Source of the DNA: Chromera velia
Lineage: Eukaryota; Sar; Chromeraceae
NCBI GenBank assembly: GCA_018398765.1
Contig: JAHBMJ010005785.1
Span: 6,827 to 46,213 of the forward strand
DNA: 39,387 bases
Reading direction: 5' to 3'
The notes under the pieces were generated by a model, which was not told the origin of the DNA, did not search any database, and was given only the letters and a program-made list of their open reading frames with translations. The position numbers were made by a program, and so were the translations under genes. Shown here piece by piece: positions 110-38,900 of this stretch; position 1 is the stretch's first letter; each line of letters opens with the position of its first letter.

Positions 110-3100
110 CGGTTTCCCGTACCGAGCCCCCAAGAGCATTTCCGGGGCCATGTACACATCTGTGCCTGCCTGGGTCATCGCGGTCCCTGCCGGTGTGCGT
201 CTGTGCTCCTCCCTCCTCCCCTTCTCCAATTTCTCCCGTCTCCCGAACAGCTTCAGAAGACGTCGGGGTTTCAGGTGACGCACCTGTAGTCAGAAAGAAC
301 GATTAGATCAAATGAAAAAATCAGAATTTGACCATCGAGGCATCAGAAAAAGGAAGCCCCAAAGGATAAGCAGAAAACAAACGAAGAGAACAAGGAAGTG
401 CAATCCCTGTGCCCAGAGGGATGTTTGTCTGCTTTCTCAAGGACAGAGAAAAAGGCCACCGAAGAGCTAGAGAGAGACACCACAACGAGAAAAGAAAACG
501 CACAACACACATCAAGAAGCCCACCCACCTTGTCTCTCGGGTGAAACTTTCGAGAAAGGCCCAAGTCGCCTGCACAGAGAGACAGAGACACAGAGAGATT
601 GTCGAACTACACAAAGGTAAGTCAACGAAACGACTGGCTGACAGGAAACTCACCGGAAGAGGCAAGGACATTTCTTTCCTTCCTTCTTCTTCGCAGAGGC
701 ACAGGCCTTGCGTCAGAGCGAAACAGACAGACAACCAGGCAGGAAGAAACAGGCAAGGAGGCATGAAGGAAGGAAGGCAAAGTGGAGGAACAGAAGCAGA
801 AAGAATGCGAACTCACCAAGTCTGAGCGTCCCGTCGGCAGAGAGAAAGATATTTTGGCTCTTGATGTCCCTGCGGAGGAACAAAAGGGAAATGGCTTTTC
901 CTTTTTTGAGAGAGACGGCATCCAGGGAACACAGGAGGAGGAGCAGAGAGAGATCGAGGGGCAACGAGAGAGATGCAACATCGAAAGGAATAACAAACAG
1001 TCTCCCCCCCCCCCACTCTGTGCGGACAAGAAGGGCCTGTCCTCCTATTCTTTCTTCTTGTGAAGTACCAAATCCTCCCCTCCGACCCACCCACCTGTGG
1101 AGGAGATTATTCTCATGCAGATAGTGCACCGCCTGGAGGGTCTGGAAGAAGACTCTTCGAATCTGCACACTCGATCAGGCACACACATGTACAGACACAG
1201 ATCCGTTTATTTACTGGATCCTGAAGGAAACTGTACAAAGAGAAAACCCGACAAAAGACCGTTTGCAGGGAGTACAAAAGACGGGAAGAGAGACAGCGCC
1301 GGCCCAACAAACACTCGAGAATTTGGACCTCAACACACGAATAAACGACTGCAAATGTCGGTTCTTTCCTATCATACGCATCTCCTGAGCCTGTCTGCTT
1401 CACTCCCTGCCTGACCGTCTCTTCTGTGAACTCTCTGTGTTCGTGTTCAATCTTCTGTTTCAAGTCCCCCCCTGAGCAGAATTCCATCACGATCATGAAG
1501 AAGCAACGAGGATCGAAACGACCTGCACACATGTGTAGACAGACAGATAGATGCACGCATGTCAATCAAATCAATAATCCCACAGAGCATGCAAGACGAA
1601 AACAAAAACAGCCACAGACATCCAGTCCCCACCCCCCACCCAACCCAATGCATGTAATGCTTCCGTCTGCATGACGACGCTGCAGAAGGCAATCGCGAAG
1701 CTGCAATATCAATAAAACCAGAGAAAAGAAACCTCCTCGCTGTATGACTCGCTGACCGACTGACCGTACTCGAACTCGAAATGAATGAAGTCGCTCTCAT
1801 AGGACACCTGAGCGTGGTCAACGAGGGGGAAGGAGAGGAGAGAAGAGGGGCGTGAATGGGGGTACGAAGAGCGTTTGCAGCACACATAGGCATGGAAGCA
1901 GAGACTCGAGCACCCCTTCATGCATTCATTTTCACACAGAATTCATTTTCATACAGAATTCATGTATGCACTTTTTGAAAAAGAATTCTGTATGAAAATG
2001 AATGCATGGAAGCAGAGACTCAAGCACCCCTTCTTTTTGCACAGAAAAAGAAAGAGAGGGACAGACCCGACCTACCGACTGACTGACCACATATTTGTGT
2101 CTGAGTGTGAGGAGTCTCTTTGCCTCCAGAGAATAAGAATCGGCCTCTGTGATGTCCGTCACGGGGATCTTCTTCATCACAAACACGTCCTTCTCCTTCT
2201 CCTTTCCCCTCCTCTCTCTCTCGACTGTGAACACAGTCCCATACCCCCCTTCCCCGAGCTGCCTCCGCTGGGTGTACACACCCTGACACAAAGGACATTT
2301 GCATCTTCGGTTCATTGAAGTCGCAAGTTTCCACAAATACACACAGCCGAGAATGGCCAGCACGCCCAAGACAAAAAGAGCGCACAGGTTGTCAGAAGAC
2401 AACACCAAAACAATTTGAGCAGGGGGACGAGAGGAAGGGACGGCTGGGGACGATTCGTTCACAGCAACCGCATTTGTCTCTCTCTCCTTCTCTGACTCTC
2501 TCTCCTTCCGAGAGGACGCCTGCTGATGCTGAGAGCAGATGCTGCCCAAACCTCCCACCCCGCCCTTTTTGTCCCTTTCCGAAGTCGGCCTTTTGTGTTT
2601 TGGGCCCTTTTCAGATCCTGCCGGGGCCCCCCCTCCAGAGCAGCCCCTCTTTCTCTTCTGCGGCCTGCTCTCCCTCTGAGGAATCGCATCACTCACCGCA
2701 CTGGGGCTTTCACGGGCCCTTACTGTCTCCTCTTCCTCCTCCCCTAGTGTTTCGACGTCTCCAGACACGGAGAGAGAAACGGAAGAAGGACAGTCAGAAG
2801 ACACCAACACATCCCCGCCTCCCCCCTTGTCCGTGTGAGTACGTATTGAAGAAGAAGAAGAAGAAGAAGATGGCACAGGTTCCTCCTCTGGCTCCTTCTC
2901 TGGACGATCAGGTTCGCACCTCTGTCCCTGGCCATACACACAAGGTCCACCACCCCCAACGCACAACTCCTCAAGGAGAGGCTCGGGCACAAACGGCATG
3001 GAAAGAGACATTGGTTTCCGTTCTCTGTCATCTTCTAACGACGGGCCCTTCTCCTTCAAGGCTGCGACTGCTGCAGCCTCTGCCTGTTCCTTCTCTCTCT

Positions 3101-3326
3101 GTCTCTGTGCTACCCTGTCTCTCTCCGCTCCACTCTGGGCCCATTCGTCTGCCTCCCCCCAAGCCGCTGTCTTCCTCTCTGTCGTTGCAGAGACGGACGG
3201 AACAGAATGGCCGTCCTCGAGCGCTGCGGCTGCGCTTGCAGAGGCCGTGGAACATCTGGAGGAATAAATTCGCAACTGCGAGATGACGATTGTCAAAGTG
3301 ATGGTGCACCGGCTTGATCTAAACAT
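110..3326 (-). CDS. NEK-like Ser/Thr protein kinase with N-terminal transmembrane anchor (3' end beyond window)
   Basis: Seven exons, 5' to 3' on the minus strand: 3326-2088, 1807-1765, 1522-1416, 1162-1095, 869-817, 569-529, 169-110. They encode 537 residues so far. The phase closes at every junction and the last exon ends at a GTCAGT donor, so the gene continues past base 1. Residues 1-313 are low-complexity (Ser, Glu, Arg). Residues about 314-335 (LCALFVLGVLAILGCVYLW) form one membrane helix. The kinase domain starts near 354: glycine loop GEGGYGTVF, lysine in VMKKI (about 385), VMEFCSGGDL hinge, HRDIKSQN (485-492), DLG (505-507) and APE (525-527). The DLG triad and the hinge match NEK kinases; NEK6 and NEK7 also carry DLG, so it should be active. 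NEKs act on centrosomes, cilia and mitosis; a membrane anchor is unusual for them. The start is the first ATG of the open frame; an upstream exon is possible. Confidence 0.82.
1890..2033. mobile_element. Short TIR element with 30-bp direct repeats, in kinase intron 1
   Basis: An 84-bp insert (1920-2003) has near-perfect inverted ends: left TGCATTCATTTTCACACAG, right the complement of TGCATTCATTTTCATACAG. It is flanked by direct repeats 1890-1919 and 2004-2033 (29 of 30 identical). The insert contains an extra internal copy of the TTTTCATACAGAATTC motif. No coding capacity. It lies wholly inside intron 1 of the kinase gene, about 50 nt from the donor. Confidence 0.75.
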
Positions 3327-4106
3327 TCTCTTCTCTCCTTTTCCTTTTGACACAGCGTCTCTCTTGTGTTCCTGTTCTTTTGACTCTTTGCACAAAGGAC
3401 AGCGCGTCTTCCTAGATCTTCGACAGACCCCTCACGACAGAAAAGGAGTGCGCCGAAGTCTGATCAGCGTCCCTCTACCTATATACCTGATACGGCAACA
3501 GGCACCCTGTTGCCCGTTCACAATTCCTCCTTTGTGATGACACACGGTCAAAGAGCACTGCGCGTAGCGGTAAGACCAACGACGAAGATTGCAAAAAGAT
3601 TAGTCCTGCCTGCTGCACTGTCTTGCCAAACAAGAAGCCCAACTCATTCATACTCATTCTGCCTCACACTGTCAGACCTTCGATCAACGCGCGGTGACGT
3701 TGAATCTGAAAAGTGCCCCTCAACCATTCATGACAAAATTCGAGTGCGTATATTCAGGCCGCCAGTCAAGTTCGCACGCGCGCGCGTGCGAGCGAAACTG
3801 TTTGTTTGGCCGAAGTTGCAGGTTTTTTCCTCTTTTTCTCAGACTTTTTGTTTGTGTTTGACCCTTTACACCAAAAATGCAATCGAAGGGGACTGCTGGT
3901 CGGAGAGTCATACAATCTGCTCATATATATATACCTTTACAGCTTTCCAACTGTCCCTGTAGGTTCAACAGTTTCAGAAGCAAAGAAGCAAAACACAGAG
4001 ACGATGCACCCGGTTGGATTCGTACATATCAGGCACTACAATTGACGCTCTTCAGGGTTGAGGCTCTCCTTTTGCAGGTGGACAGAGAGAGCGACGGAGT
4101 GAGGCG
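3327..4106. promoter_or_regulatory. Divergent intergenic region between kinase and kinesin
   Basis: About 780 bp separates the two start codons, so it should hold both promoters. It is not AT-rich. It contains a perfect 20-bp palindrome of alternating purine/pyrimidine (3772-3791) and a TATA-like run (TATATATATACC, about 3924-3935) about 175 bp before the kinesin ATG. No convincing gene is seen. Confidence 0.45.
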
Positions 4107-5340
4107 ATGATACCAGAGAGCAGAGAGAACGTCCGGACGTTCGCACGCGTTCGTCCTCTTCTTCACGAAGAAATAGACAGCTACCGAATTTCCATCTGTA
4201 CTGATGTCGTCACAGACAGGGAATTGGTGCTGGCAACAGAGACAAAGAAGGAACGGTCAGGAAAGCACACGAAGAAGCCCTCACACAATCAAGTCAACAA
4301 TTCTCAACCACCTCTTTTATTTGCTGCGGCTTTATGCAACCCTTGCGAATGCCGATTTTTCAGTCCCTCTACGTACCCCCAGAGTAGGCATGCTTTTATT
4401 CACATGCTGCGCGAAAGAAATGAAGAGAATGGTTCATGGTTTGACCCCTCTCTGTCCTCGTCCTGTGCCTTTATGGTCATGTGAGAAAGAAAATTGGTCA
4501 TTTCTCCCCTTCTAAGGGTAAAGCTTTCCCTTCTGTCGGTGGGTGCAGGTTCTACACAGATGGGGTGTTCGGTCCCAAAAGCGGGAACTCGGAGCTCTTC
4601 CAGACAGTCAGAGAGCTCGCAGATGCCGCTGTGGGGGGACACACGGGGTTCTGCCTCTCAATCGGGGCCATCGGTCAGTGCATATGCGTACACGTGCATG
4701 AAGAGAATGTGAGCGCGAGCGTGTGAGTCTGTGTGTGGGGGGGGGTTCGTCTGCATGTGAATGTGTGGGGATGCACATGTGTCTTTGAATTCATCAATTT
4801 ATCTCGTCTATCGTTCTGCTCCCCTCCTGACAAAGCATCTATTCATCTGACTCCTTCATCTTCTAATGAAGTTTTGTCATGTTCTCCTCTTTCCCCTTTC
4901 AGGGTCGGGAAAGTCCCACACCCTCTGGGGCCCCGACCACTCGGCGGAGGCCACCAACGCTCTCGTGAAGGCTCTGGAGGAGAAGAGGGGGCCTGAGGAA
5001 ACTCTATCGGACGCTCTCGGAAATGATCAAATAGTCAGCATACGGAACGGGAAAGGCAGAAAGCCAAAAATGAATGTATGAATTTCTGCTCGGGTTTTTC
5101 TTCGTTTTCTTCGTCTTCTCAAATCATTTCCTGGGTGCCGAAAAAGAATCGCACGGAAGGGCATTCAGGTATTGTGGAGAGGGGAGTGCAGTTTTGAGGC
5201 AAAAAGTCGATCGAAGATGTATATACATCTCAATCTACATGTCTGCGGCGAGAAGCTGTTCAGGCGACCTGGTAGCTTCCGTCTCTGTATGTGATGATCA
5301 TTTCATCTCTCTGTATTTGTGTGCATAGACAGACGTATGA

Positions 5341-5420
<80 letters not shown>

Positions 5421-6341
5421 ATGCATGTGCAGAAAAGCTTCACAACTCGTTGGACGGAGGTCCGGCAGGCTGCCGCAGAGAGAGCACGGCAGGTTGCGGC
5501 ATCCCGAAGCCAAAAGGGAGCAGGGGAGGCGTTGAGGGAGGGCTCCAACGAGGCTCCAGGAAAGAAGGGGGGAGGGAAAATGAGGCAAATGTTCGAGGAG
5601 GTAGATGCGGACCTGATGGAACCTCCTGTGGCGTTTAGAGAGAGGTCACAAGAAATGGAGATGGGAGACAGATTCTCCGAGAGAGGCGTGATTCTCCGAG
5701 TCATCGAGTCAGTCAGTCAGTTCGTCTGTCTGGTTGGCTGTTTTTCATTTTCTCCGCCTTCTCTCTCTCTCTCTCTTTCTCTGTCTGCACGCTTGTGTGT
5801 TTGTGTGCCTGTTTGTCGGTCAGTCCGAGTGTGTGCATGCATCTGCACCCTCCGCCCCCCCGTCTGCAGACGTCTGTTGAGTCGAAAGGATCACCAGAAA
5901 GAGAGGGCGGCCGCGAGGGCCTCTGCCGGCCTCCTCGGGAGTTCCGCCAACGACCCGGCGGGAGCGGCAGATGGGGGTCTCGTCTCGGGGGCCTCCGGGG
6001 TCACTCCCCCGCAGCCCTCTGGTCCTTCCTCGTCCTCCTCTGGGCCTCTGATCCAGTCCGTCTCCGTCTCTGTGGTGGAGATCTTCGACGGGAAAGTCAC
6101 AGACCTCCTGCAGGACTGGAAGGATCCGCAGGGAGGTCTCCATGTGCCATTCAAGGTCGGTCTGTATGCGTTTATTTTCACACAGAATTCTGAATGCCCT
6201 GAAAAAGAATTTTGTACGAAAAAGAATGCTGTATGAAAATGAATGCCTCCATGTGCCATTCAAGGTCGGTCTGTAAATCGGCTCCGAGGAATCTTCCCCA
6301 CCCTCTCCGACCACGTGGAAGTATTGCAAATAAACGGACAG

Positions 6342-6413
<72 letters not shown>

Positions 6414-9400
6414 TTCTCTTGTTGAAGGGTGACAGTCAATTGATTGGACTGCGGGGGGATCAAATCATGAAGATGCGGGCAATGGATCTGCCGATGAGAA
6501 AAGTATCTGTTTACTACCGCACAGACACAATCAAGGTCACATTCAACAGATGCGCTACTCAGGCCCTCTCATGCCTATCCCTCAAACACTTATCCGCATA
6601 GACAAAAATCACATTATAAACGCGCTTCTCTGCGTGTTCCATGCAGTCATCTTACAGATAAATATCCTGCGCCCCTCTCTCCTCTCCTCTTGTGCAGCCC
6701 ACGTCCCCCTGGGCCACCATCGAGGGCGCGTCTGAGTGGTTCGTGAAGAGGCCGGAAGAGGCAGCCGTGCTTCTTAGACACGCAGAACAAAGGTGGGCTA
6801 CACGTTTTGTTGTTCTTGCGTGTGGGTACCTGCATAGAGACGAAATAGTATTTTGCCTAGACACGCAGGGGAGAGGTGGCCATGCAGGGCAGCAAGATGG
6901 GATACTGACAGAATGATCAACGCTTTTCTGCTTTGGCTAAATCGCAAAGAGAAAGGAAACGGACGTATCGTGAATGTCTTTCTCGCTCTCTCTCTTCCTG
7001 TCTCTGTGCATCTGTATGTGAGATGAACAGATCACTCAGCAGCGGTGTCTTTCCCACCCATTAGAGACATCGCATGTGCTATGCATTTCTTTGAGTGTGC
7101 AGACGCCAGCTTCGTCACTGGCAGCTTGGGAAGGCAGGGAATCTGAGTCGGTCGACGGTGGTTGTGCAGATCTTTGCGGACTCCCTGGCGGCCTCCCCAC
7201 CCCCTGCTCCTGCGGTCTCTCAGCTCGGCATCGGCAGTTCTTTTGCGTCTCCGAAATCTGCTCTGGGAGCCTCTTGGAGAGGGAGGAAGGACAGGGAAGA
7301 GACAGGGTCTGCAGCAGACAGAGGGATTATAGATGGCGGGGGTCATATGGAAAGTTTGGCGTCAAAACGCTTGGGGGGCAAGGAAGGGGAGAAGGAGAAG
7401 AGGAGGCTGAGAGAGCGACTGACGAGAGGGAGCGTAGTGCTCGTAGACCTCTCTTCTTTCCAGAGATGGGAACCTGGACTGTCAGTCAGTTTTTCTCTTT
7501 TTTTCTCTCTCTTTTTCTTCAATCCAGTTAGCCGCCCTTTCTCTTCGCAAATCTGCCATGAACCTATCTATTGAATGGGTAGACTATCATCCATTTGATT
7601 TCACTGGTTGACGTGAGCCCATTTCTGTTTGATTGAATGCAGAGAGGGCACGGCTTCGCTGGCCCCAACTCTCCGGGCTATGTCCTCCGATGGCGGGAAG
7701 GACGAAGAGGGGGAGAGAAGGGAGACAGGGAACGAGAAGGAGAAGGAGGGGGAGGGAGAAGGGGAGGAGAAGAAGGACGAAATCCCGGCAGTTGTCCCTC
7801 CCACACAACTCCGAGAGGGTTCTCAGATTCTTCGGTTGGCATTGGAAGATGTGGACAGACAGAGGGCCAGATTCGATAGAGGACAGGTCAGTGCATTTAC
7901 TTTCATACAGAATTCTTTTCATGCAGAATTACTTTGTTTCGTATGGGAAGAAAAGCATTGGAAGATGTGGACAGACAGAGGGCCAGATTCGATAGAGGAC
8001 AGGTCAGCACGCAGAGAATGGTCTTCGCTGCTTGATGCTCCAGAGAAACGTTGTCAGGGATTCGGACAAAAGAAATGTGCGATACAGAAACAAATTCAAG
8101 TTTCACATTGAACATCCGCATCCTCTCTTCTCTTCTTCCTCTCGCCCATTCATCGTACTGCATCGACACGCACCCATTCAATGCATGGTGGTACAGATAT
8201 TCGTCTTCACCTTCTTCATCTTTTTCTTTTCTGTGCAGCTTCGTCACTCTGCTCTGACTCGTCTCCTCGCCCCCCTCTTCTTTGGAGGCGCCAGAGCAGT
8301 AGTGATTGCTCATGTGTCCCCTGCACCCTCAAAGGCACCTGAGGGCATGGAGACACTCCGAATTCTCACGCTGTTCAAGAAGGTCAGTCAGGAGATGCAT
8401 TTATTTTCATACATTTTCATACAAGAATATTCTGTGTGAGAATAATGAGGGCATGGAGACACTCCGGATTCTCACGCTGTTCAAGAAGGTCAGTCAGAAA
8501 GGAACACTGTGCAAACAAATCCGCTGAGAAGATCCGATTCCATTCAGACTCCACGTTGCAGGACATCTGCATATGTGGGCCTTCCTTCTCGATTCATTCC
8601 CTCCCTCCCTGCAGGTGTTCTGTGTTCCGCGTCCTCTCTGGCTGGCTTTGTCTGACGTTCAGCTCGGTCACCTTCTTCTCCGTTGGCTGAATTACCTCAA
8701 GAGGGGCCTCGGGGGAGTCACCATCGATACCCATGCAAGCGCCAAAATGAGCGACCCCCTCGTCCTGCGGGTAAGTAGATAGATCTTCAATGAATTGGAC
8801 AGAAAACAGAATCCCGTTTTGAAAAGGTGCTTTTGACGCACACACACGAGAAGGTGAAAAGGCAGACAGACCCTTTTGAAAAAGTGCAAAGCATTTGATT
8901 TGAGACCATCTCAGTTTCATGTGAATTTGTTCTCGTAGCACCCCTCTGCTTCAGAACCTCCGCCTGCATGTCAGGAAGATCTTGGAAGAGCTCAAAGCAT
9001 CGACGCTTGATGTCAGGGGCCTGTGGAGACATTCGCTTTCTTTCACATCATATTAATATTTCGTCTGTATCCCTACTATGCATACATGTGACCGCGTAAT
9101 GAATGCTGCAGAACTTCCACCTGATGGTTCTCGAGGAGTTGCGCCTCTCCGCTCGGGAGCTCCAACAGAGACGGCTGAAGGGACTGGTCAGAGATCCGTT
9201 GCCGTGGCAGCATGTGGCGACGTCTGCTGAGGGGCTGGGAGAGGAGGAGGGGGGTGAGGGGATTGAGGGGCCGAGAGGGGTCGGGAAGGAAGGGAGACTC
9301 AGCGCAGCAGCATTCGTCAGTCTCTTTCTGCACCGAGTCTGAGCAAGGGCTTTTTGGGGTCATTCATTTTCGTCAGAGGGAATGGAAGTGAGGACAGAAG

Positions 9401-10421
9401 TTAAGGTTTTTCCGGTATCGGAAGTTTTCAGGCAGTGAACGGTAGTTTGGAGCTTTTGGGGGAGAAAAAACATCAGTGTGTTTTTGCTTCTTCAACGTGT
9501 GTTCCACTGAGGAGTATGTGCGCTTTTTTGACGTGGCATCGAGGTCATCCGTTTCTCTGCCTTCAGAATTTGGAGAGTGTGCATGCCAGTTTTCACGTCC
9601 TTTTCTTGTTCTGCGTCTACGATCTGCAGATGACGCTCACAAAGCGACTGAAAGAGACAGACGGAAAGAAGGTCGGTACAGATCGGGATGAAGAGAGGAG
9701 GGAGCCTTGCTCTTTCTACGATAAGGACGGAACATTCGTTGACCCTTTCGCAACATACTCATGCACTGACTTCAGTCACTTTTTGTTTTTCATCTGATTC
9801 ACTCTTTCCTCCCAATGTCCTTTTTTGGTTTCGTTTTTTCGATTCTTTTCAGGGAAGCGAGAGGAGCTACATTCCTGCAGAGCCCGACGAGGTTCTAGAG
9901 ACTCTGCAGACAGTGGAAGAGGAGGAAGAGGAGGGGGGGGGCAGGGGAGGAGAGAGCATGCACACCGGATCCGCGGCCTCCCTGAGGGTCCACTCAGGAG
10001 GGACTCCCGGGGCCTCCAACGCACCCACACGACAGAGCCACAGGGAGAGGGAGGGAACTGAGGGGGGACGAGGAGGAGGAAACCAAACGCTAGGGGCAGA
10101 GGAGGAGGGGGACCTAGATCTAGACACGCTCATGGCCGCACGGAAGCGGGTGGAAGAGCTCCTCAAAGTCAGTCGGTTGGAATACATGTGTAGTAGGAGA
10201 ACGACTTCAAAAGACGAAAGTGGCGTACAGTTTGTTTCACTTTGCCGTGACCCAATGAGTGGGGGAGTAGAACTGAAAGGTCTCTTCAAGGCAAATTGTG
10301 CAGTCATTCAGTTTCTCTCAGCGTCGATTGTATAAATCCCCCTATGTCTGTATGCATGTACATGCATTTGTGGATGAATCTTCTTGTATGTGTAATTGTG
10401 TGTGTGTGTGCGTGTGTGTGT

Positions 10422-10457
<36 letters not shown>

Positions 10458-13400: not shown

Positions 13401-14076
13401 CTCTCCTCTATCTGTGTTCCTGTCTTTAATCTGGGTCCCTGCAGCGGCTGAAGAAGCTCGCCGATGTCGCCGCGTTCCGGGAAAGGAGGCTCCAGGTTGG
13501 TCTATGAATTCAGTTTCATACAGAAGTCTTTTTCATACAGAAACATGTATGAAAGTGAATGAAGGCTCTAGGTTGGTCCGAGAAGGAGTTTTCTGGGAAG
13601 GGAGGGGAGAAGAAAGGAGTGCGTCTGCATATCGGTATGCATTCCCGGGGCCTACTTTTGAGGTTGCTCATCCTTTACCGCTCCTTGATTGACGTCGAAG
13701 CATGATGATTCCGCTGCAGCTTGGAAAGGATGGATGCATCGATAGAAGGCATGCGTGTATTAAGAGCACATGTAATTCGCACCTACACAAAACAATATTG
13801 CAGGAGCGCATTCAGCAGTTAGAGGAGGAGCGACAGGCAGAGGAGGCCGCGTTGAAGGAGGAGCAGGAGAGGGAGAGGAGACGGAGGAGACGCAACGAGG
13901 AGCTGAAGAAGAAAATTGCAGAGCATCACGCAGCCAGACAATCAAGGTGAGAGAGAATTGAGGTGGAGAAATGACATGAGAAGTAGACAATCTTGAAAGG
14001 CAAGAGGCAAAAACGGTCTGGTCTTGAAGTCTGGCCGCATAAATGGGGTCCTTATTCTCTCTCTCAGTGTCTGCCT

Positions 14077-14115
<39 letters not shown>

Positions 14116-20210: not shown

Positions 20211-21239
20211 GATTGGAGAGAGAGAGCAGGACGGACGGAAGAAAGGAATAAATCGACACTCCGTTGGTTTGAGAACGTGAAACGAGGAAAGGGGGGGAGG
20301 AATAAATCGACACTCCGTTGGTTTGAGAACGTGAAACGAGGAAATGGAGGCATAAGGCACCCTTGAGTATGTACACACCTGTGTACGTGTCCGTGTGTGA
20401 TTAAGAGAGAGAAAGAGGGAGATGAAGAGAAAGAGAGAGAGACAGACAGAGGGAGAGAGAGATAGAGAGATAGAGGGACGAAGACAGACAGTTTATTTAA
20501 GCGTATGTATGCGTGTGAATAAGATCTTGAGTCTGCATCTGCATCTCCCCGCCGCCCCCCCTCTGTGAATGATATTGATATTCCTCGCAATGCATGGGGG
20601 CACTTGCATGATAGCGAATGAATCAATAAAAAGTTCCCAGGTAAATGTCAGAAATCCAAGTCGACCTGACGCAGCGTACAACAAAAGGGATAGAATGCGA
20701 GCGTAGTGCTCAGTTCTCTTTTCTCTTCTCGTTTATGAGTTCAGGTCAGTGTCGTTGAGAGATTGTACTTTTGTGCGCGTTTGTGAACCGTGTGGGTTCA
20801 CTGTGACGCAGGGTTGGGTTTGCTGGATGGCTGAGTCCGGTTCTGCTTTGCTTTTTCCACTTTGGGCGTGCTTCTATATGCACTGCCCGTGCACATCCCA
20901 TGCAGTCAGGAGGCCAGAGGAACGAAAGACAGCGGGGTGTAACGGGATTTTTTTCGTCGATTGACATTTGCTTTTTCTCTCTAAAAAAGGCTCGTGCGTA
21001 GACATGTAGATGCGTGCAAAAGCCTCGTTGGGGGGCGCACAAATTTAAGGAAAAGGGAGCAGCAAGACCAAAATGAGAGAGGTGTTTAATGTATGGATTC
21101 ACGCACTGGCTGGAAATGCCGTTTTCGTCTCTCGAAGACATTTTGGAAGAATGAGAGCGCGATTGCTTGTTTTGCAGTAGAACTCGCACTGTTTTGTCGC
21201 ACATGCGAGTCGAGATGCGAGTTTTCCGAGAAAGTCGAG
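20211..21239. other. 3' flank of the membrane-protein gene, no gene seen
   Basis: It contains a 46-bp direct repeat (20245-20290 and 20299-20344), a purine-rich GA tract (20405-20480), and then ordinary sequence. Open frames here are short and without recognisable domains. Confidence 0.5.
20245..20344. repeat. 46-bp direct repeat with 8-bp spacer
   Basis: Copies 20245-20290 and 20299-20344 are identical and begin GGAATAAATCGACACTCC; a G-rich 8-bp spacer separates them. They lie just after the stop codon, probably in the 3' untranslated region. No inverted-repeat element lies between them. Confidence 0.88.
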
Positions 21240-24895: not shown

Positions 24896-25290
24896 TCCTA
24901 ATTACAGCCTAAGTTATAACGTGCGTCTTTTAAAATTTAGATTTATTTAATTAAAATATGATCTCAAAAGTTATGGATTTTATAATCAAAACGTAGTATA
25001 AAACGAGTGAAACATTTTAAGGTCCATTTATTAGTATTTATCTAGGCAATAAAATTTTATACCAGATTCGTAACCAGAGTAACCAGAATCTAAACGTACT
25101 ACACCAGAGTACAATCATATGTTCTTTTCAGACATCATTTTTTTAGTTTTAGCTTAATTTAGAATAATGTTTTAGATATTCAACGCCTTGGCTTGAATCT
25201 ATCATCAAAAAGACCTGCAAGTACCTACAAGTAGACTTTGTTCTCTGTATATGAAATTATATATATTTTTTTAAATATAGAATTGGATGA
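24896..25290. other. AT-rich island at the 3' side of the ankyrin gene
   Basis: Runs such as ATTTATTTAATTAAAATATG and TATATATTTTTTTAAATATAG dominate. No gene. Together with the others it marks a gene 3' end. Confidence 0.55.
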
Positions 25291-25497
25291 AGATGGTTGG
25301 TAAACTGTTGATTTACGGTCTCACTCGCATGGCTAAATTCAAAATCTTTCAAAACGCAGGAGCAACGTGCAAGCTGCAGTCTCAGTGGAGGGACATTGGA
25401 GGCGTTCGGATTGAGCAAGTGATTGACCGACTTCCCTCCTCCATAGGGCCTTGACCTCCTTAGATGCCCGACCCCTCCTTCTTCCCCCTTTGTCCAC

Positions 25498-29300: not shown

Positions 29301-30089
29301 CAGAAGGAGGAGGGTAGAGGGTAATTGAATGACTGTGCATGCATGCATGTTTTGTGAGGACCCAACACCTTTTCCCACCCCCGTCCGGTTTTCCTCTTTC
29401 TGTGTGATCAGAGAAGGCAACTGGAACTTTCCCATTCCTCTGTACGCCTTTGCTTTCTCTCGCCTATCTCTTTCTCTCTCTCATCCAATCGGGGTGATGA
29501 CTGACTTGAGAGAGATCGTGCATGTCCTTCCTCCCCTCGATCATTTGTGTGAATCTGTGTCTGTCTGTCTGTCTGGATGTCAGAATTTGCCTCCCTCGAT
29601 CCAAGTTTCAAAGGGTGAAATGAAAGACAAACAATGGCCGGATGACTTGACAATTTACTGATCGAGTCAGTGACCCAGCCTATCAATGAATGAATCTGTG
29701 TAGATGAATGCATCTCTTGGGTGATTATTTAACGGACGATGGCCGGGTCGTGGCAGGATGGCTGTCGGACTCAAACAGTGTCGGAAGGATTCCATTCGCA
29801 TGACATTGTACGTATGAACTCATACAGCCACCATTGCCCTGAATGCGGATGTTTCACACGGTGGGAAGGCTGTAAAACAAGGCGGCCGGACGAGAAGCAA
29901 GGTTCAGAATGTAGAGAACTAGGTGAAGAAAGAGTGGTAAGCTTATTTGGACTTTTGGGCGTAAATCTTTGAAAAGAGGTAGAGACTTTTGCACAGAGTT
30001 CAGCATGGCTGCCATCACGTAAGGTTTCAAGCCCGCAAAGTCGGTCTGGCTGGATTGTGCATGGTCGTTTAGTTGGACTCATTTTAGTA
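29301..30089. other. 3' flank of the four-TM gene, no gene seen
   Basis: Mixed-composition sequence with only short open frames. A 77-codon frame (29739-29972) has several cysteines but no support from neighbours. Confidence 0.4.
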
Positions 30090-30830
30090 GACTCTGCTTG
30101 CATTCTGTGGAGTTCAATTCTCATCACTACGCATCACTACATTCTTTCAAGATTATTGATGATTATTCGTGTTCTATCATCAAATTCTCTTGCATCTACT
30201 TGCATCCAAGGCTCCGTTTGCAATAAATCTGTACGTTTTATTGCTTAAATCATAGTCTTAATCATTCATAAATAGTTTTAAATCTTCAGATAATTCACAA
30301 ATAGTACGTAGGATAGTTTCGTATTATTCATAAGTATTCTAGTGACAAACTCATTATAATTTGCAAGTAATCAAAAATTGATGCTAAAATTGATGTTGAA
30401 ATCGTTTTACAGCCTAGTTTGCAGCATTTCTCACTGTATTGGTTACTAATAATCTGAACGATAATAGAATTTTTTCTTAATGAGAATTAATCAGAACTCT
30501 TCTATTTGTAGCTCAACTTTATTCAATTTTAAAGAATATGTAACATAATACGTTTTACTAAATCATTCAAGTTTTATGACTTTCAGTTCTTAAAAATTCT
30601 TTGGATAAATATTTTAGTGATGATTTTTTGGCCTTCTGAATAATATTACAAGTTCTTTTGTGTCAGATTTAAGACTCAGTCTGCATCTAGGTCTGCATCG
30701 TCTCAGCAACATTCAATCAACTACGGTATTGCAAGGTTATGCCATGTACATATCGTGAATTTATAATCGACAAGAGACAATTCCATGCAGTAGTAACTCC
30801 GTCTTGGTGTTTTCATCGAAAAGAGAATTC
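30090..30830. other. AT-rich island between two convergent genes
   Basis: About 740 bp of strongly AT-rich sequence without a gene. It lies between the four-TM gene and the scramblase 3' end. Confidence 0.6.
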
Positions 30831-30978
30831 GATTGATATCCTGTCCACCAGTCGCCCTCTTCAATCTTCCTTCCCCCCCCGCTGCCTGCCTAACGAATCC
30901 ATTCCCAATCTTTAGAAATAGGCGCCCACATTCGAAGATCCTTCTTTTGTGTTCCTCATCCCGTTCTTCTTCCTTCCT

Positions 30979-32316
30979 TCAGCCGGTGCTGTTCTCGTCC
31001 TTCTTTCCCCCCTGGAACATTCGGAAGTCGATGAAGATCGCCGCAGTGACCAGCATTGCCTTCCACTGGGGCTCGCTGACTGCACCGAAGTCCACCCTGC
31101 AGGCAGGCACTCAATCAATCAAAGGCAGAATGTCATTCATTCAGTTATCTTGGACTCTTCCATTTGATCAAACCTTCATCTCAAGGGACCAGTCAGTCAG
31201 CTAGTCCGTAAGTCATTCACTCACCCTCTCACTTACTCACTCCCTCACTCCCTCCCTCCCTCCCTCCCTCCCTCCCTCACTCACTCCCTCACTCACTCAC
31301 TCACTCACTCACTCGATCAAGGACTCACGGAAATCGAAACCAAAAGAAGCGACTAAACAATTCAAGGAAAGACAGACCACCACTGTTGCTATATACGGGG
31401 GGAAAAAAGGAAAGACGGACCAGTATTTGTCGTTCATGTCATCCGCAATAGTGCCCAAGCACGTGTTCTCCTGCATGCGTGCCAACACATGTCGATCAGA
31501 ATTGTACAGGAGAAACGAATGCATACAGACGAATGCATCGATCCATGCATTTACTTTCATACAGGAAAAAAAAAAGAATTGTGCAGGAGAAACGAATGCA
31601 TACAGACGAATGCATCGATCCATGCATTTACTTTCATACAGGAAAAAAAAAGAACCGTACAGGAGAAACGAATGCATACAGACGAATGCATCGATCCATG
31701 CATTTACTTTCATACAGGAAAAAAAAAAGAATTGTACAGGAGAAACGAATGCATACACACGAATGCATCGATCCATGCATTTACTTTCATACAGGAAAAA
31801 AGAAAGAATTGTACAGGAGAAACGAATGCATACACACGAATGCATCGATCCATGCATTTACTTTCATACAGGAAAAAAAAAAGAATTGTACAGGAGAAAC
31901 GAATGCATACAGACGAATGCATCGATCCATGCAGTGCCTGGCACGGGCATATTCTGCACCATGCCACAAGAAAGCAGTCCAAACATGCAGAGCCATGGAA
32001 AGCCTCCTTTTCTTTCAAGCTGGCCAACGATCTCCTTCGATAGAAAGCAAAGGGGCACCTTTGGTCTTATCGACTCACAGATAATCTTTCCCTCAAAAAG
32101 CTTTCGCGCTCTGTTTCTCTGTGTCTCTTACCTCATCATTTTCTGTCTCTGTGTCTCTTTCTCTTTGTCTTCTGTCTCCCCCCTCTCTCCTTGTCTGTGT
32201 GTTGTCACCAAGACGATCTCTGTAAGTCGCATGCTTGTGTGATCTTGAGTGAGTGAGTGAGTGAGTGTGTGTGTGTGTGTGTGTGTGTGCGTGTGCGTGT
32301 GCGTGTGCGTGTGCGT

Positions 32317-32360
<44 letters not shown>

Positions 32361-35289
32361 ATTTCTATTCGAGTATGCATGAATCCACATTTTCCCTCCT
32401 TCCCTCCCTCCCTCCCTCCCTGCAGACCTTCACGATCTGTCCCACGGCCTGCTGCGACTTCATGTCGGTGATGTCGAACTTCACGTACTTGCACGGACCT
32501 GCACAGGCACGCACACACAGTTAGAAAATCGGACATTCTCATGCACATACACGCAGAAATAAAGACAAGCTCAGACACATACACAGGCACATACACACTC
32601 ACACACGTATCCTCACACGTAATAGTTCCTCTACCCAGATGGACATAAACGTGTGTCTCCTGACAAAACCCCAACCCCCTCCCTCCCTGGCCGCCATAGC
32701 AATTTTCATTCTGCCTGCCTGCCTGCCTGCCTGACTGACTGACCACAAGGGCACTTGCAGCAGATCCCGCACTGCATACAGTTTCCCTTGATGCGGAGGG
32801 TGGGGTTCTCCTGCAGACAGGGAGAGAGAGAGAGAGAACACGGGGGGTGAGGGAAGACGTACACTGACAGACAAAGACAGAGACCGGAAGAGGTACAAAG
32901 GCAGATGGAAAGACGGAAAGACAAAAAGTGGGCAGAGAAAGAGAGACAAACATGCAGACAGGGAAGGACATCGAGACAGCTTGATGGACGCAGGCAGTCA
33001 GGCAGACAGGCGGGCAGACAGACAAGGAGGCACGGACAAAGACAGAGAAAGCGACTTTCTTTCGGAGTGACTCTGCAGACGTACAGACAGACGTACAGAC
33101 GGACTGGCTGACCTGATTGTCATTGATGGAGAAGATGTGATTGCAGCAGTCAAAATCATCCTTCAGGATTCCGATCTGCTGACCTGCAGGCAGATTGGTT
33201 GTAGAAGGATTGATTGATTGATTGATTCATTGATTGATTGCTTGCTTGCTTGATTAATTGATTGATTAATTGATTCATTGATCGATTGATTGCATGGATA
33301 GATAATCGTTAATTCATTCTGTACCCATCGCATCCGCAGAATCACAAATCCCGCTGCAGCGTTTCGGACGACAGATCTAGTGGAAAGCGGAGCATAGAGG
33401 GACAGAGAGAGACAAAATATGAAAGACAGAGACCGAGAGAGACTGACCGGTGTGGTTGTTCATCACTTGCATCTTCGGTCTGTTGAGGCAGCAGCAGGTC
33501 ATCTGGCACTCCTTATCGGCCTTGATGAACGGTTGGGGGGACTGTCCGGGAACTGCAATCAAGCAAAAGAGTCACAGCGATAGCAAAGATCGAGGTCAGG
33601 GATAGAACTGGGAGGGCTTCCCAAGGCTCAGACAAATCGGACCAAACCAGATTGAAAGTCGAAGCCGACACTCTTCAGAGCACGCGGATCAATCCACGTG
33701 CAGCCAAGACACTTCTTCATACACGCAGGCGAGACGATGTCTGCATACCTTCACATGCGGACATATTCACACGTACACTCGCGCACGCACGGAGAGGGTG
33801 AGAGGCAAAGAGAGCCTAGACAGATGTCCGACCGATCAACCGACGGACCTTTGATGAACATCTCCTGCATTCTTACATACAAAATTTTGATACATACATA
33901 CATAATGCATGCGACGGACCTTTGATGAACATCTCCAAGTTGAAGGGACGACAAGTCGTTCTGCAGCCAGACAGCATGCGGTCATGAACTGAAAGGGTGC
34001 GGACTAGACGATGAAGCACAAAACAAAAAGAAATACGACATGCAGGGTCCCGCAGTCTCCATTGAGCAGGCAGAGGAGGATAGACAAAAAGAGACGGGCA
34101 GACAGGTCCAGGGGCAGGCAGCCACGCAAGGACGGAGGTCAGCAACGAGACAGCGAAAGGAGGACAGGCAGGCAACCAGACATTCATGTTTGAGTGTTCT
34201 GATCGACAGCCGTCGGTTACGCACGCACCCATACAAATATTCTATCGGCCAGTACGTAAGGACTCGACTGACGGCAGACAGCATCTAGCGCAGAACCCCG
34301 TGGTCTCCTTGGCGATGAACATTTCGTTCCCGTTCACATCCTTTACCGCATATCTGTGTATGGATCGATCATTCGTATGCGTGCGTGAAGGAGCACCGCG
34401 TCTTTTTCGCATCAAAATGACATTCAACGAGTAAGCTGCAGAAACACTTTCCCTACTGAAGGCCTTCGTATAGCCGATCTGTGAGAAATTCCTCTTCGGA
34501 AATTCTGCATCAGTCTGTGCTCATCAATGTGTGAATCCATCCGCCAAAACAATAGTGACTGAATCTGCATGTATGAGATTCGCTGAATGACCGTTTTCCC
34601 TTAAGAAACTTTACACTGTCAGGCAGTTGAACGGCAAAAAGAAAAGAAAAGAGTCCATTTGCGGAGAGAGAGTGTGCTGGAGGAAAACAAACTTTGCACT
34701 CCAATAATCGCTCCATTAGAAACAAGAATTCACGCGGCTGTTTTTGAATCATCTCTCAGGCACAAAGCAGAAGCGAGAGCCCTCTATGTACATGTTTGTG
34801 TGAACACAATTGTTTTCACATCAGTGTTCCTCGACTACGATTATCTCCAGATCCAAACGCCCCCCTTCACGTTCTGCCCTCCGGTCCTCAGGAGGATAGA
34901 TGGAGGGACGCGTACAAGGTTGGATGCCTGACCGTGATGGTGCTTTGAACCGATACGTATGCATATATGTATGGATGCACCCATGAGGGCGTTCTTTCCC
35001 TTTCCATCCCTTCCTTCTCTCTGTCTCTAATCCTACTGACTTGTTCGCCTGGTCGATGCCGATGAATTCGAGGATCTTGATCTTCTCCTTCACGTACACC
35101 TTCTGCTGAGCTGCATGGAAGCATGAATGTTACTCATCGATCGGTCTCTGCATATAGATGCTCGAAAAGACGCATATGTAAGTACTGTCACTGACATGCG
35201 AGCATCTGGAAGGGATCCATTGTGAACTGCATCGGTGGAGCGGCCATGGGCTGCCCGAACTGCTGGGGAGGGGGCTGAGGAGGCTGCAT
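30979..35289 (-). CDS. Phospholipid scramblase (PLSCR family), ten exons, 255 aa
   Basis: Exons 5' to 3': 35289-35196, 35110-35041, 34353-34273, 33960-33920, 33552-33448, 33183-33113, 32810-32744, 32498-32428, 31470-31421, 31096-30979. Phase closes at all nine junctions. Order of scramblase signatures: Pro/Gln-rich N-terminus (QPPQPPPQQFGQP), KIKILEFIGIDQANKYAVKD, GNEMFIAKETTGFCARCCLP, CRPFNLEMFIK, CQMTCCCLNRPKMQV (Cys-rich, palmitoylation-type), QQIGILKDDFDCCNHIFSI, NPTLRIKGNCMQCGICC, KYVKFDITD...AVGQIVK, and the C-terminal hydrophobic WKAMLVTAAIFIDFRMF. This family moves phospholipids between leaflets, or tethers and signals at the plasma membrane. The usual calcium loop before the C-terminal helix (DADNFGIQFPLD type) reads ADDMNDKYWVDFG here, so calcium control may differ. 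An upstream exon cannot be excluded, since TGCAG precedes 35371 in frame. Confidence 0.88.
31205..31315. repeat. (TCCC)n/(TCAC)n microsatellite
   Basis: A run of TCCC and TCAC tetranucleotides in the last intron of the scramblase gene. Confidence 0.88.
31499..31932. repeat. Tandem array of TIR-element end plus 51-bp flank, period 76-77 bp, six copies
   Basis: Copies start at 31499, 31576, 31652, 31729, 31806 and 31883. Each unit has a 51-bp segment (GAATTGTACAGGAGAAACG...) followed by TTTACTTTCATACAGG and an A-run. The last copy stops after the 51-bp segment. The end of the segment and its neighbour spell TGCATTTACTTTCATACAG, the inverted-repeat end of the short elements elsewhere in the window. 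So the array is (flank + element)x5 + flank. It lies in the scramblase intron before exon 9. Confidence 0.9.
32247..32359. repeat. (GAGT)n/(TG)n/(GTGTGC)n microsatellite
   Basis: A compound repeat in the scramblase intron between exons 8 and 9: GAGT units, then TG, then GTGTGC units, then TG. Confidence 0.9.
33207..33296. repeat. (GATT)n microsatellite
   Basis: GATT/GCTT/GATTAATT units in the scramblase intron upstream of exon 6. Confidence 0.85.
33841..33936. mobile_element. Short element with 25-bp direct repeats duplicating the scramblase exon 4 donor
   Basis: A 46-bp insert (33866-33911) begins TGCATTCTTACATAC and ends in a weak inverted match. The flanks 33841-33865 and 33912-33936 are identical over 25 bp. 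On the coding (minus) strand they read the exon 4 end GATGTTCATCAAAG followed by the donor GTCCGTCG. The exon-proximal copy (33912-33936) is the one that keeps the frame. Confidence 0.75.
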
Positions 35290-35920
35290 GTCACAGATGG
35301 GGTCCGGGTTTGAGAGTCTGACAAGGTCCGAGTTCCCTGATTTGCCACCGAGCGCCAGAGCGAAAGAGGCCTGCACGCGTCCGCTTGTTCGCCAGAGAGG
35401 TGTCTGAGGACTTCAGTCGCGATCTGTAGAATTCAGAGTGAATATCTGAATCACAATCGGACAGCGAAACTGCATGCTAGAGGGGTCGAGGTGCTCCTTT
35501 TGCATGCATGTGTTGAAATTGCCGCGAATTAACTTATATATATATGCATGCATGCATGCAGGCGTCCGCAACCGCGCGGTTCCGCAAAAAAATTATGCAT
35601 GCATGCGAAATCTTTTGATTGCGATCATCCGACTCAACATATATGCAAAACAGATTGATCGAGAGATGATTGCATGAGAGACTCGGCAAGATTGCAAGAG
35701 AATCTGCCTGCGTCATTACAAAACTTCGTACTGTTTGAAAGGCAACGAAGGCGCAGCACTTCTTGCGTGAAGCCGCTAGGGTACTCTGCTAAAGCACCCT
35801 TACCCTCAGGCGAGTACTTTTGACACACGTGGTACAATCAAAAACGTCTCCATTTGTACCCGCTTCCACCTCAGGTTGCTTCCCTGCAAGTGGACGAGAG
35901 GCCCTAGAGCGAGTTCAAGA
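35290..35920. promoter_or_regulatory. Divergent intergenic region between scramblase and the signal-peptide gene
   Basis: About 630 bp. It contains several TGCATGCA motifs (about 35545-35560, 35595-35605, plus one near 35503) and a TATATATATATGC run (35535-35547). The frame upstream of the scramblase ATG stays open to about 35376, so part may be scramblase coding or 5' untranslated sequence. Confidence 0.45.
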
Positions 35921-38900
35921 ATGACTCGTCCTCTCCCCCGGAGCAGCCTCTGTGGGTGGAGGATTGGGGTCACTTTTTCTGTCTGGCTGCTCTTCTGTGT
36001 CAGTCTCTCCGATGCTAAAGGAAACACACGGGCACGAGAGCGGCTCTTTGCTTCTTACAGCGACCCGGGTCTTACTCATAAATCTCTTGCAGAGGAACTG
36101 GGAATAGGTGAGTCGTCTCTGTCTGCATGAGTGTCGTGGTTCATGTGTGAAGACGTATATGCACGTGCATGCGGTTGTATATTGATCCTTGCTTCCGGCA
36201 GACATGCATGCGTCCTCATGTATACATCTATGTCTCTCTTTGTAATTTTCAGTCACCGCGTGCCTTTTTTCTGAGACTCTGTCTGTTTGAATAGTATAAA
36301 AACAGTCCTTCTCTATCTGAATGGATACAAGGCTGAATGCACATGCGTCCCGGGAATGTGTGTACAAACACAGAGACAAGAAGGATATCTAGACGCCCAT
36401 GTCTGCTTGCTGATCCTTAAGTCGGTCCATGAAATATTTTGCTGTTTGTCTCTGTACATGACTGAGCGGTTGCAGAGACGGGAAGCATCCGTCTGTTGAA
36501 GCACAACAGAGGGAGTGTGATGGACTTGGCAGGTGCCGTTGAGGAGGCAGAGGCGTGCGTGCTGAAGGGAACGGGAAGGAAAATCATCCCCGAGTTCTCG
36601 GATGCTCAGATGGCAGATCTGAAAAGCGAGCAGGCTCTCGATGCTGCAGAAGAACATGAAGGTGTCAGAGAAGCCAAGAAAAACGACAAAGCATTGAAGG
36701 GAAACAAGAAACAAAAGGGAAGAGTGGCAAAAACTTTGAAAAGATGGAGAGCATGGGTGAAGGGCCGATGGAAGAAAGTGAAGTCGTTCAGGTTCTCGAA
36801 GGTGCGCGCGAGCCTGTCCAAAAAGTACAAATTGTGGGAGGTCGCACGATCAAGAGCCAAACTCGCGGGGGTGCTAAAGAAATACGAACTAATCGACCCT
36901 ACTGCAAAGTGCTTCCGCACACTTCGCCGCCTCCCTCAGGTCGGACAACCCTCCCCTCCTGCACAAGGTGCGAATGAATGTTGTGCCTTCATGGGCAACT
37001 AACAAGCACTCATACATACTTGGATGAGATGTCCGTCCCCACTTCACATCGTCCCTCCGCGTGCCTCCCCAGAGGATAAAGCGATGTGTTCTTTCTTCTT
37101 TTTTGTTCTCTCTCACTCCGACTTTCCTCTCAGCTCTTTGCTGTCTCCCTCTTCTTTTCTCTGATACATCACATCCATCTCCTGTTCACTCCTGTATCAG
37201 CACACAATGCTCGTTTTCAATTTTGACTCCCGTCAATCTTCCTTCCTCTCTCATCATCTCAGAGCCATGTAGACCAAAAGGGCACACACAATTCGACCTT
37301 CTCAGGTCTCTTTACATATTCTTGTCTGCAGGTGAAGAGGACAGACTTTGACCTTCTCACCTTCTGCAAGCTGACCACTGACCAGGTCTGTGGCGAGGCC
37401 TATGTTCACATGGACGGCGCAACTTTAGAGAACACCTACAAGACCCGTCCCCAGAAACTGCAAGGCAACACCATCACAGAGCAAATTTCGGATAGAAACC
37501 TTGCCAAACACAGCAACGCTACGAGCAAAGACTTTGAGAGAGAATATTTGAAGCAGCACGAGGACCCGAGTGCCACGAGTGCCCCAGTACGGGACCAGTA
37601 CGACGCCTTCCACATGGATGACCCGAATTTATCGGAATTCGAAAACAGATTTTGGACACAAAAGGAAAGTTTCAGGTGAGTGGGACCTGCGATTCGCCCT
37701 GTTTACAAACGAAAAGAAGAGTAGAGGACATGATATGATGCTTTTCTTCTTCGTTTCTGAGCATTGAGAGGAGAAGGCATCGGAGAGAATGAGTACATAG
37801 ACTAAACGAAGGAATGAACTCATGAATGAATGGACGTCTGGAGAAATATCGCCGAAAGAAAAGAACGACTAAATGGACAGATGAATCCAATGCCAAGTGC
37901 ACGTAGGTACGCCCAAATCCGAGCATGCCATCACATGTTGATCCACAAGACTTACGTCCCGATGGAGAAGATGATCAAAGACCTTATCTGGCAGAAGAGA
38001 AAGAACCTCATCGGCATCACACTCAAGTTCTTCATCATCGCGGGGGCAGTCACCGCAGCGGTCCTCGTGCCTCCCGTCAGTCCAGTCTCTCTTCTTCTCT
38101 GTGTTGTTTGATATGCCTCCCGTCAGTCCAGTCTCTCTTCTTCTCTGTGTTGTTTGATGTGTTTTTTGATGTCTCCCGTCAGTCCAGTCTCTCTTCTTCT
38201 CTGTGTTGTTTGATGTGTTGTTTGATGTGCCTCCCGTCAGTCCAGTCTCTCTTCTTCTCTGTGTTGTTTGATGTGTTGTTTGATGTGCCTCCCGTCAGTC
38301 CAGTCTCTCTTCTTCTCTGTGTTGTTTGATGCCTCCCGTCAGTCCAGTCTCTCTTCTTCTCTGTGTTGTTTGATGTGTTGTTTGATGTGCCTCCCGTCAG
38401 TCCAGTCTCTCTTTTTCTCATCTCAGCTCGCTTACTCGCTTAGTGCTTCGCTTCGCTTTGCCTCCCTCCCCCCCCTCTTGCCTCTTCTCTTGTGTCATCT
38501 CATCTGTCGTGCCTTCCTTCTTTTACACGGACTCATGCAGCCCTTGCTTGGGTCTCAGCAGCCTCCCTCCCTATTGCAGCCAAGAATATTGAGAGTCAGA
38601 ATGGCATCTCGGAATCTTCTTCCCTGCATGCGTGTGATACCTATTGCAGACCCTGGGCCTCAGCATTTTCTTTTTTTTTCTTTTCTGTATGAAAATAAAT
38701 AAATGAATTCTGCTTGAAAATAAATGCAGACCCTGGGTCTGAGCATTTTCGCGACAGCGGGTCTGGGAACAGCGATCGCCGTCGGGTCATTTGCTGGTCG
38801 GAACGCGGTGGATTACGTGACGGGGCAGGAGGACGCATTCTCGTTCGCGAAGATCAAAAAGTTCGGAATGCAGGAGACGGCTGTGTACGCTCTGTCTATA

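What the first reader, a model, noticed from the sequence alone, without database searches (positions are those of the whole stretch)
1890..38750. Family of tiny TIR elements whose long flanking repeats duplicate splice junctions
Eight loci carry an insert bounded by TGCATTYATTTTCATACAG and its complement, or remnants of it. Inserts are 46-84 bp outside the tandem array. The flanking direct repeats are 16-53 bp, far longer than target duplications of ordinary cut-and-paste elements. In six loci (6138, 7839, 8341, 13487, 33841, 38645) the repeat spans an exon/intron junction and stops only 5-11 nt inside the intron. The result is a decoy copy of the exon end and splice site within the intron. 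The exon-proximal copy is always the one that keeps the frame. This resembles introner-type elements, known from other algae and dinoflagellates, but the long junction-spanning repeats suggest a different insertion or copying mechanism, perhaps one tied to splicing or to R-loops at donors.
Basis: partly seen in the sequence, partly recalled or inferred. Interest (0 to 1): 0.93.

Follow-up and report, generated by a model that had tools for sequence, protein, structure and literature searches.

The report
Mobile elements that duplicate splice junctions
In the alga Chromera velia, tiny hairpin-like mobile DNA pieces are found mostly where exons meet introns, flanked by a long duplicate of that boundary, which appears to leave the gene's message intact and hints at an insertion process that recognises splice sites.

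Summary
Confirmed, and it extends beyond the window. The genome matches Chromera velia CCMP2878. The 19-bp end occurs 1904 times at up to 2 mismatches, against 14 for the reversed pattern. Of 127 element clusters sampled from the window and 105 loci, 108 have strong direct repeats of 15-69 bp (median 36) around inserts of median 73 bp. A home-made gene finder run on insert-free sequence puts a splice junction inside the repeat in 64 of 123, against 14.1 +/- 3.6 for random placements. If intronic and junction-spanning insertions simply survived, 17% of the two together would span a junction; 61 of 80 do. One repeat edge lies near the junction (intron part at most 11 nt in 48 of 60); the other is loose in the exon, without a clear motif. 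At the six junction loci of the window, deposited proteins fit use of the exon-proximal copy. This is not a standard introner: those six copies lie in existing introns. Likeliest process: a long staggered break with one nick at the splice junction. No empty site, enzyme or RNA data were available; what marks the junction is unknown.

The parts
1890..2033 (.). Repeat (1890-1919), element (1920-2003), repeat (2004-2033); inside a predicted intron of a minus-strand kinase-like gene, not at a junction
6138..6275 (+). Repeat 6138-6166 spanning a donor (junction 6155|6156), element 6167-6246, repeat 6247-6275; kinesin gene
7839..8007 (+). Repeat 7839-7891 spanning a donor (7886|7887), element 7892-7954, repeat 7955-8007; kinesin gene; the two copies are identical over 53 bp
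8340..8497 (+). Repeat 8340-8391 spanning a donor (8382|8383), element 8392-8445, repeat 8446-8497; kinesin gene
13487..13578 (+). Repeat 13487-13502 spanning a donor (13495|13496), element 13503-13562, repeat 13563-13578; kinesin gene. Short repeat, score 13, below the 15 used for most counts
31498..31933 (.). Tandem array of (repeat + element), five units of about 77 bp, in a predicted intron of the scramblase gene (minus strand), 27 nt from an acceptor
33841..33936 (-). Repeat 33841-33865 spanning a minus-strand donor, decayed element 33866-33911, repeat 33912-33936; phospholipid scramblase gene
38645..38750 (+). Repeat 38645-38670 spanning an acceptor, element 38671-38724, repeat 38725-38750; exon starts at 38730 in the copy used by the deposited protein

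Best explanation
A family of tiny, apparently non-coding palindromic mobile elements (TGCATTYATTTTCATACAG and its complement around a short variable middle) enters C. velia genes through a long, variable staggered break. One strand is cut within about 2-11 nt of a splice junction, on its intron side; the other is cut at a loose position some 5-50 nt inside the exon. Fill-in duplicates the 15-69 bp between the cuts on both sides of the element. The exon-proximal copy keeps the exon end and the splice site, so element and decoy copy lie in the intron and the message can stay unchanged. SHOWN: the repeated family; long repeats around most sampled copies; the excess at predicted junctions; one edge near the junction; deposited models that fit the exon-proximal copy at six loci. 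INFERRED: that the repeats are target-site duplications (no empty site was found), that the junction is recognised during insertion rather than only favoured by survival, and that the mark is linked to transcription or splicing. The enzyme is unknown.
For: 1904 ends at up to 2 mismatches against 14 for the reversed control. 108 of 127 clusters have a repeat of score 15 or more; at random positions 12 of 243 do. Junction inside the repeat in 64 of 123 against 14.1 +/- 3.6. 61 spanning against 19 intronic where survival alone gives 17% spanning. Intron part at most 11 nt in 48 of 60 (19.6 expected), 43 of 54 with gaps allowed (17.5 expected), 16 of 17 single-junction identical repeats. 34 of 57 local repeat pairs in 237 kb hold the element, and 22 of the 26 that span a junction do. 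TGCAG at the repeat edge is a predicted acceptor in 22 of 32 against 245 of 1502 in the same loci. Arms match in subfamily letter in 38 of 45 elements. Keeping the insert in the mRNA would bring a stop or frame shift in 50 of 54. Six deposited junctions fit the exon-proximal copy.
Against: Junctions outside three window genes are predicted only; the predictor agrees exactly with 27 of 41 deposited introns it was compared with. 59 of 123 repeats hold no predicted junction; among the 108 strong ones 19 are intronic, 15 outside predicted genes and 12 exonic. In acceptor-type copies the upstream decoy acceptor scores higher than the one that must be used in 30 of 37. Mismatches between copies show no sign that the exon-proximal copy is the constrained one (14 of 25 and 7 of 11). 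Filler bases often separate repeat and element, unusual for a transposase. No empty site and no coding partner was found.
Confidence: 0.55

Rival explanations
1. Exon targeting plus selection. The element enters exons in general, with long duplications; insertions wholly inside exons are lost, and those whose duplication includes the splice site survive, so the junction looks targeted.
For: The exon part exceeds the intron part in 46 of 54, and the minimum intron part is about what a splice site needs (2-3 nt). Exons differ from introns in composition (GC 57% against 48%, purine 55% against 43%). Only 12 of 108 are wholly exonic.
Against: It still needs exon borders to be respected within about 10 nt, which composition hardly gives. 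Hit exon edges are not unusual in GC or purine.
Confidence: 0.25
2. Sequence targeting. A transposase or nuclease reads splice-site motifs in naked DNA (TGCAG, GTCAGT) and makes an unusually long, variable stagger.
For: TGCAG lies within 11 nt of a repeat end 32 times where 4.3 are expected, and the element itself ends in TGCA, giving short overlaps with the target in some copies.
Against: TGCAG at repeat ends is a predicted acceptor in 22 of 32 against 245 of 1502 generally, although some of that contrast could come from longer motifs or from loss of exonic insertions. Donors and acceptors share little sequence.
Confidence: 0.12
3. Repair product. Staggered breaks at exon edges are patched with filler, or a replication fork switches template, and the element is captured or copied as filler rather than moved by its own enzyme.
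For: Variable repeat length, filler bases and occasional microhomology; Daphnia new introns are explained by staggered breaks (PMC4202315, passages).
Against: The insert is one repeated family whose two arms match in subfamily letter (38 of 45); 34 of 57 local repeat pairs carry it, where random filler would vary. Daphnia repeats are 4-12 bp.
Confidence: 0.06
4. Artefact of assembly or of gene prediction.
For: The published assembly is short-read based (PMC4501334, passages); the gene finder is home-made and agrees exactly with 27 of 41 deposited introns.
Against: The same predictor scores the random placements. Six of eight window loci span junctions that fit deposited proteins; a rough binomial gives 7e-7 counting the 54 agreeing junctions or 8e-5 counting all 118 predicted junctions of the window. 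The pattern recurs in 108 sampled places.
Confidence: 0.02

Closest known systems
Introners (Gozashti et al. 2022, PMC9860276; passages and section 7 read)
   Same: Small repeated elements inside introns, some with TIRs and target duplications; splice sites may be recruited from the duplication; insertion can leave the message unchanged
   Different: Introners create new introns and the reported duplications are 3-9 bp; here the six window copies lie in existing introns and sampled repeats are 15-69 bp, often across an old junction
Amoebophrya introner elements (Farhat et al. 2021, PMC7789003; passages read)
   Same: Alveolate host, inverted repeats able to form a hairpin, direct repeats overlapping exon/intron borders
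   Different: Direct repeats there are 3-5 nt and the repeats bound the whole, often non-canonical, intron; here canonical introns contain the element beside one junction
MITEs, non-autonomous TIR transposons (described in passages of PMC7789003; otherwise recalled)
   Same: Short, apparently non-coding, terminal inverted repeats, many copies, flanking direct repeats
   Different: Duplications of TIR transposons are short and nearly constant within a family (recalled; PMC7789003 gives 10-15 bp for MITEs); here they vary from 15 to 69 bp; no parent transposon was found
Daphnia new introns from staggered breaks (PMC4202315; passages read)
   Same: Direct repeats explained by staggered double-strand breaks, with inserted sequence between them
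   Different: Repeats of 4-12 bp, new introns rather than old junctions, and inserts described there as break-repair insertions rather than one TIR family
Direct repeats near intron borders (Rogers and Bendich 2025, PMC11782384; abstract read)
   Same: Direct repeats at or near intron/exon borders read as insertion footprints
   Different: 4-30 bp, mean 11.4, across many classes of intron; the abstract names no single element family

Membership tests
Introner | Insertion creates a new intron | tested here: not met
   At the six window junction loci the element lies within an intron that extends beyond it. Elsewhere judged by prediction only; the 12 repeats predicted wholly exonic were not examined for new introns
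Introner | Many similar copies in introns of one genome | tested here: met
   1904 ends; of 108 strong-repeat copies 61 span a junction and 19 are wholly intronic by prediction
Introner | Target duplication of 3-9 bp where present | tested here: not met
   15-69 bp, median 36, in 108 clusters; reference range from PMC9860276
MITE / TIR DNA transposon | Terminal inverted repeats | tested here: met
   45 elements with both arms recognised; arms match in subfamily letter in 38. Many copies have only one recognisable arm
MITE / TIR DNA transposon | Duplication of short, nearly constant length | tested here: not met
   Quartiles 29-43 bp, range 15-69
MITE / TIR DNA transposon | A coding relative with the same ends | tested here: inconclusive
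   108 clusters have short inserts (up to 332 bp); the repeat search could not see longer ones, and 19 of 127 clusters were weak or unresolved
Target-primed retroelement (LINE or SINE type) | Variable-length duplication with one specific and one loose nick (recalled) | tested here: met
   One edge near the junction, the other loose and without a clear motif
Target-primed retroelement (LINE or SINE type) | A-rich or fixed 3' tail, RNA promoter, 5' truncation (recalled) | not tested
   The palindromic element shows no obvious tail by eye; no search was made
Staggered-break insert (Daphnia type) | Direct repeat of the target around an insert | tested here: met
Staggered-break insert (Daphnia type) | Inserts are not one mobile family | tested here: not met
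   34 of 57 local repeat pairs carry the same element. My wording of the feature, inferred from the passages

The most novel reading that the evidence does not exclude
A mobile element whose insertion process reads splice junctions themselves, acceptors and donors alike, through a transcription- or splicing-linked structure such as an exon-length RNA:DNA hybrid. It opens a staggered gap from the junction into the exon and duplicates the whole junction, so that insertion into genes is harmless by construction. I know of no transposon that integrates this way, and the searches listed none.
Probability: 0.33. Interest if true: 0.96.

Novelty: new variant of a known kind. Interest (0 to 1): 0.85.

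Why it matters
If an insertion process respects exon borders to within about ten nucleotides, DNA integration must be coupled to something that marks exons: RNA, splicing factors or chromatin. That would give a mobile element a way to enter genes without harm, a route by which introns grow and gain decoy splice sites, and a natural test of which of two near-identical splice sites a cell uses. The material is ready-made: 1904 recognisable ends in one sequenced relative of malaria parasites, with identical repeats around 30 of 108 strong sampled copies.

Tried and rejected
Decay of similarity in introns as the cause of short intron parts: unlikely, because identical repeats behave the same (16 of 17 with one junction have an intron part of at most 11 nt) and gapped extension changed 3 of 54.

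Junction duplication as a general habit of this genome: not supported by the scan of 21 stretches, 237 kb. A donor-spanning tandem array without the element does exist at 38071-38413 and was not among the pairs kept by that scan.

TGCA microhomology as a rule: not general; some ends overlap, many have filler.

Insert kept in the mRNA: a stop or frame shift in 50 of 54.

Coding constraint on one copy: no signal (14 of 25 acceptor type, 7 of 11 donor type).

Composition or strength of hit splice sites: no clear difference (donor strength p 0.07).

First training of the gene finder drifted into repeat-rich false exons and was redone with changes to masking, transition costs and splice-site priors. 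These settings were chosen by hand before the element test.

Empty sites: none in two 10-kb genome queries nor among the fetched loci. Only these were tried.

Literature: searches listed no account of this family or of long junction-spanning duplications. The 2016 Nature work on DNA transposons making introns was not read (recalled).
Full report
Where it is. The window lies in a 178-Mb assembly of 4040 contigs. A scramblase predicted from the window matches a Chromera velia CCMP2878 protein at 100% identity over 93% of the query; two more window genes match C. velia proteins. The published C. velia assembly is 193.66 Mb in 5953 scaffolds (PMC4501334, passages), so the copy held here may be a part of it.

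The observation. The 19-bp end has 17 matches in the window at up to 3 mismatches; shuffles average 0.01. Eight loci hold the element or its remains. Outside the array, flanking repeats are 16-53 bp and inserts 46-84 bp. At 6138, 7839, 8340, 13487, 33841 (minus strand) and 38645 the repeat spans a junction and ends 5-11 nt into the intron. Deposited proteins read across all six junctions as expected if the exon-proximal copy is used. At 13487 the donor agrees but the deposited next exon starts three codons earlier than predicted. The published models came from Augustus with mapped RNA-seq as intron evidence (PMC4501334, section 17); whether reads cover these introns was not seen. Six of eight loci on junctions has a rough probability of 7e-7 if the 54 junctions on which prediction and deposited proteins agree are counted, and 8e-5 if all 118 predicted junctions of the window are counted.

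The sample. At up to 2 mismatches the end occurs 953 + 951 times; the pattern read backwards occurs 6 + 8 times. I took the sites of the 100 places listed (perfect ends, in contig order) and 20 of 25 further sites listed, leaving out four arrays and one single site. Nothing was chosen for genes, but perfect ends lean towards young copies. With the window and without L003 (which overlaps L002), this gives 105 loci and 127 clusters at least 120 bp from a stretch end. 123 have a flanking repeat of score 10 or more and 108 of 15 or more; at random positions 37 and 12 of 243 do. Among the 108, repeat length is 15-69 with median 36, the insert median is 73 (23-332), 30 pairs are identical and mean divergence is 4.2%.

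Splice junctions. I trained a simple gene model on 21 long stretches with elements removed (232 kb; a first training drifted and was discarded). It learned GTCAGT-like donors and TTTGCAG-like acceptors, and it agrees exactly with 27 of 41 introns in three deposited window genes: 9 of 9 in the scramblase, 15 of 26 in the kinesin and 3 of 6 in the third. Run on insert-free sequence it puts a junction inside 64 of 123 repeats (41 acceptor, 22 donor, 1 both). Random placements of the same lengths within 350 bp give 14.1 +/- 3.6, at most 25 in 200 trials. 59 of 123 have no predicted junction; a few of these look like acceptors by eye (L022, L046, L105).

Survival alone. If insertions fell evenly and intronic and junction-spanning ones survived alike, 17% of the two together would span a junction; 61 of 80 do, p 2e-31 (the other 28 of the 108 are 15 outside predicted genes, 12 exonic, 1 mixed). 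If a repeat merely had to contain a junction, the junction's place within it would be even. Instead the intron part is at most 11 nt in 48 of 60 (19.6 expected), in 43 of 54 with gaps allowed (17.5 expected), and in 16 of 17 identical single-junction repeats. The exon part ranges from 5 to 50 nt. The exon-side edge has no clear motif; the one deviation, few T just outside (p 0.003, not corrected for 16 positions), is what delimiting would cause when the element starts with T.

Peculiar to the element. In 21 stretches (237 kb), 34 of 57 analysed local repeat pairs (58 kept; score 16 or more, spacing 20-300 bp, low complexity excluded) hold the element, as do 22 of the 26 that span a junction. 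Two of the four exceptions have inserts that look like decayed copies by eye.

Not the motif alone. TGCAG lies within 11 nt of a repeat end 32 times (4.3 expected), and in 22 of the 32 it is a predicted acceptor, against 245 of 1502 TGCAG in the same loci. For the donor motif the figures are 10 of 15 and 207 of 1168. Loss of exonic insertions could add to this contrast.

The element. It is near-palindromic with a variable middle. Position 7 of the arm matches between arms in 38 of 45 elements with both arms recognised (p 1e-5), while none of 45 other left-arm variants is shared (2.0 expected). This suggests two subfamilies copied as units, with later changes private to each copy. Extra bases often lie between repeat and arm. 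Tandem arrays of repeat plus element occur, one with 24 exact ends at 119-bp spacing. The repeat search could not see inserts over about 330 bp, and 19 of 127 clusters were weak or unresolved, so a rare coding relative is not excluded.

Effect on genes. Keeping the insert would bring a stop or frame shift in 50 of 54. In donor-type copies the two donors score alike. In acceptor-type copies the acceptor that must be used follows the element's own end and scores lower than the upstream decoy in 30 of 37. How the earlier, stronger acceptor is passed over is open; the one acceptor-type model with a deposited protein (38645) fits the later one. Mismatches between copies do not show which is constrained.

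Mechanism. The best fit is a staggered break with one nick at the junction and one loose nick in the exon, filled in around the element. The family, the repeats, the junction excess and the near-junction edge are shown, by prediction outside the window's three deposited genes. The break, the enzyme and the mark are inferred. A structure made by transcription or splicing would treat donors and acceptors alike and end at exon borders, but hit exons show no clear purine or GC bias, and there were no RNA or chromatin data. The nearest rival, exon targeting followed by survival of junction-spanning cases, also needs exon borders to be respected within about 10 nt.

Known things. Introners make new introns and show 3-9 bp duplications (PMC9860276, passages and section 7). 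Amoebophrya introners have 3-5 nt direct repeats (PMC7789003, passages). Daphnia new introns have 4-12 bp repeats (PMC4202315, passages). Repeats near intron borders in a survey of 213 introns average 11.4 bp (PMC11782384, abstract). The present family differs in duplication length and in sitting on old junctions. Searches listed no account of it.

Noticed in passing
window 38071-38413: Seven copies of a donor-containing unit (CTCCC|GTCAGTCCAGTCTCTCTT...), 44-58 bp apart, at the start of an intron, without the element: a junction-spanning tandem array of another kind (positions).
   Followed up: partly
window 20245-20344: A 46-bp sequence is repeated in tandem at 54-bp spacing just after the stop codon of a predicted gene, without the element.
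   Followed up: no
L021 6729-6975: A different repeat family of about 215-250 bp, with 37 other listed places at 70-85% identity (a lower bound).
   Followed up: no
G000:C3687 11288-14612: A long array of the element with its repeat: 24 exact ends at 119-bp spacing in two runs (positions; sequence not fetched).
   Followed up: no
acceptor-type loci such as L018, L027, L041: The upstream decoy acceptor scores higher than the downstream one, which follows the element's own end; how the spliceosome passes over it is unexplained.
   Followed up: partly
loci L009-L028: Away from the middle of these seed stretches, element ends are about nine times denser than the genome average (17 in 170 kb against 1.8), so copies cluster; L021 alone has six. 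Some of the 17 may be second seeds in the same stretch.
   Followed up: no
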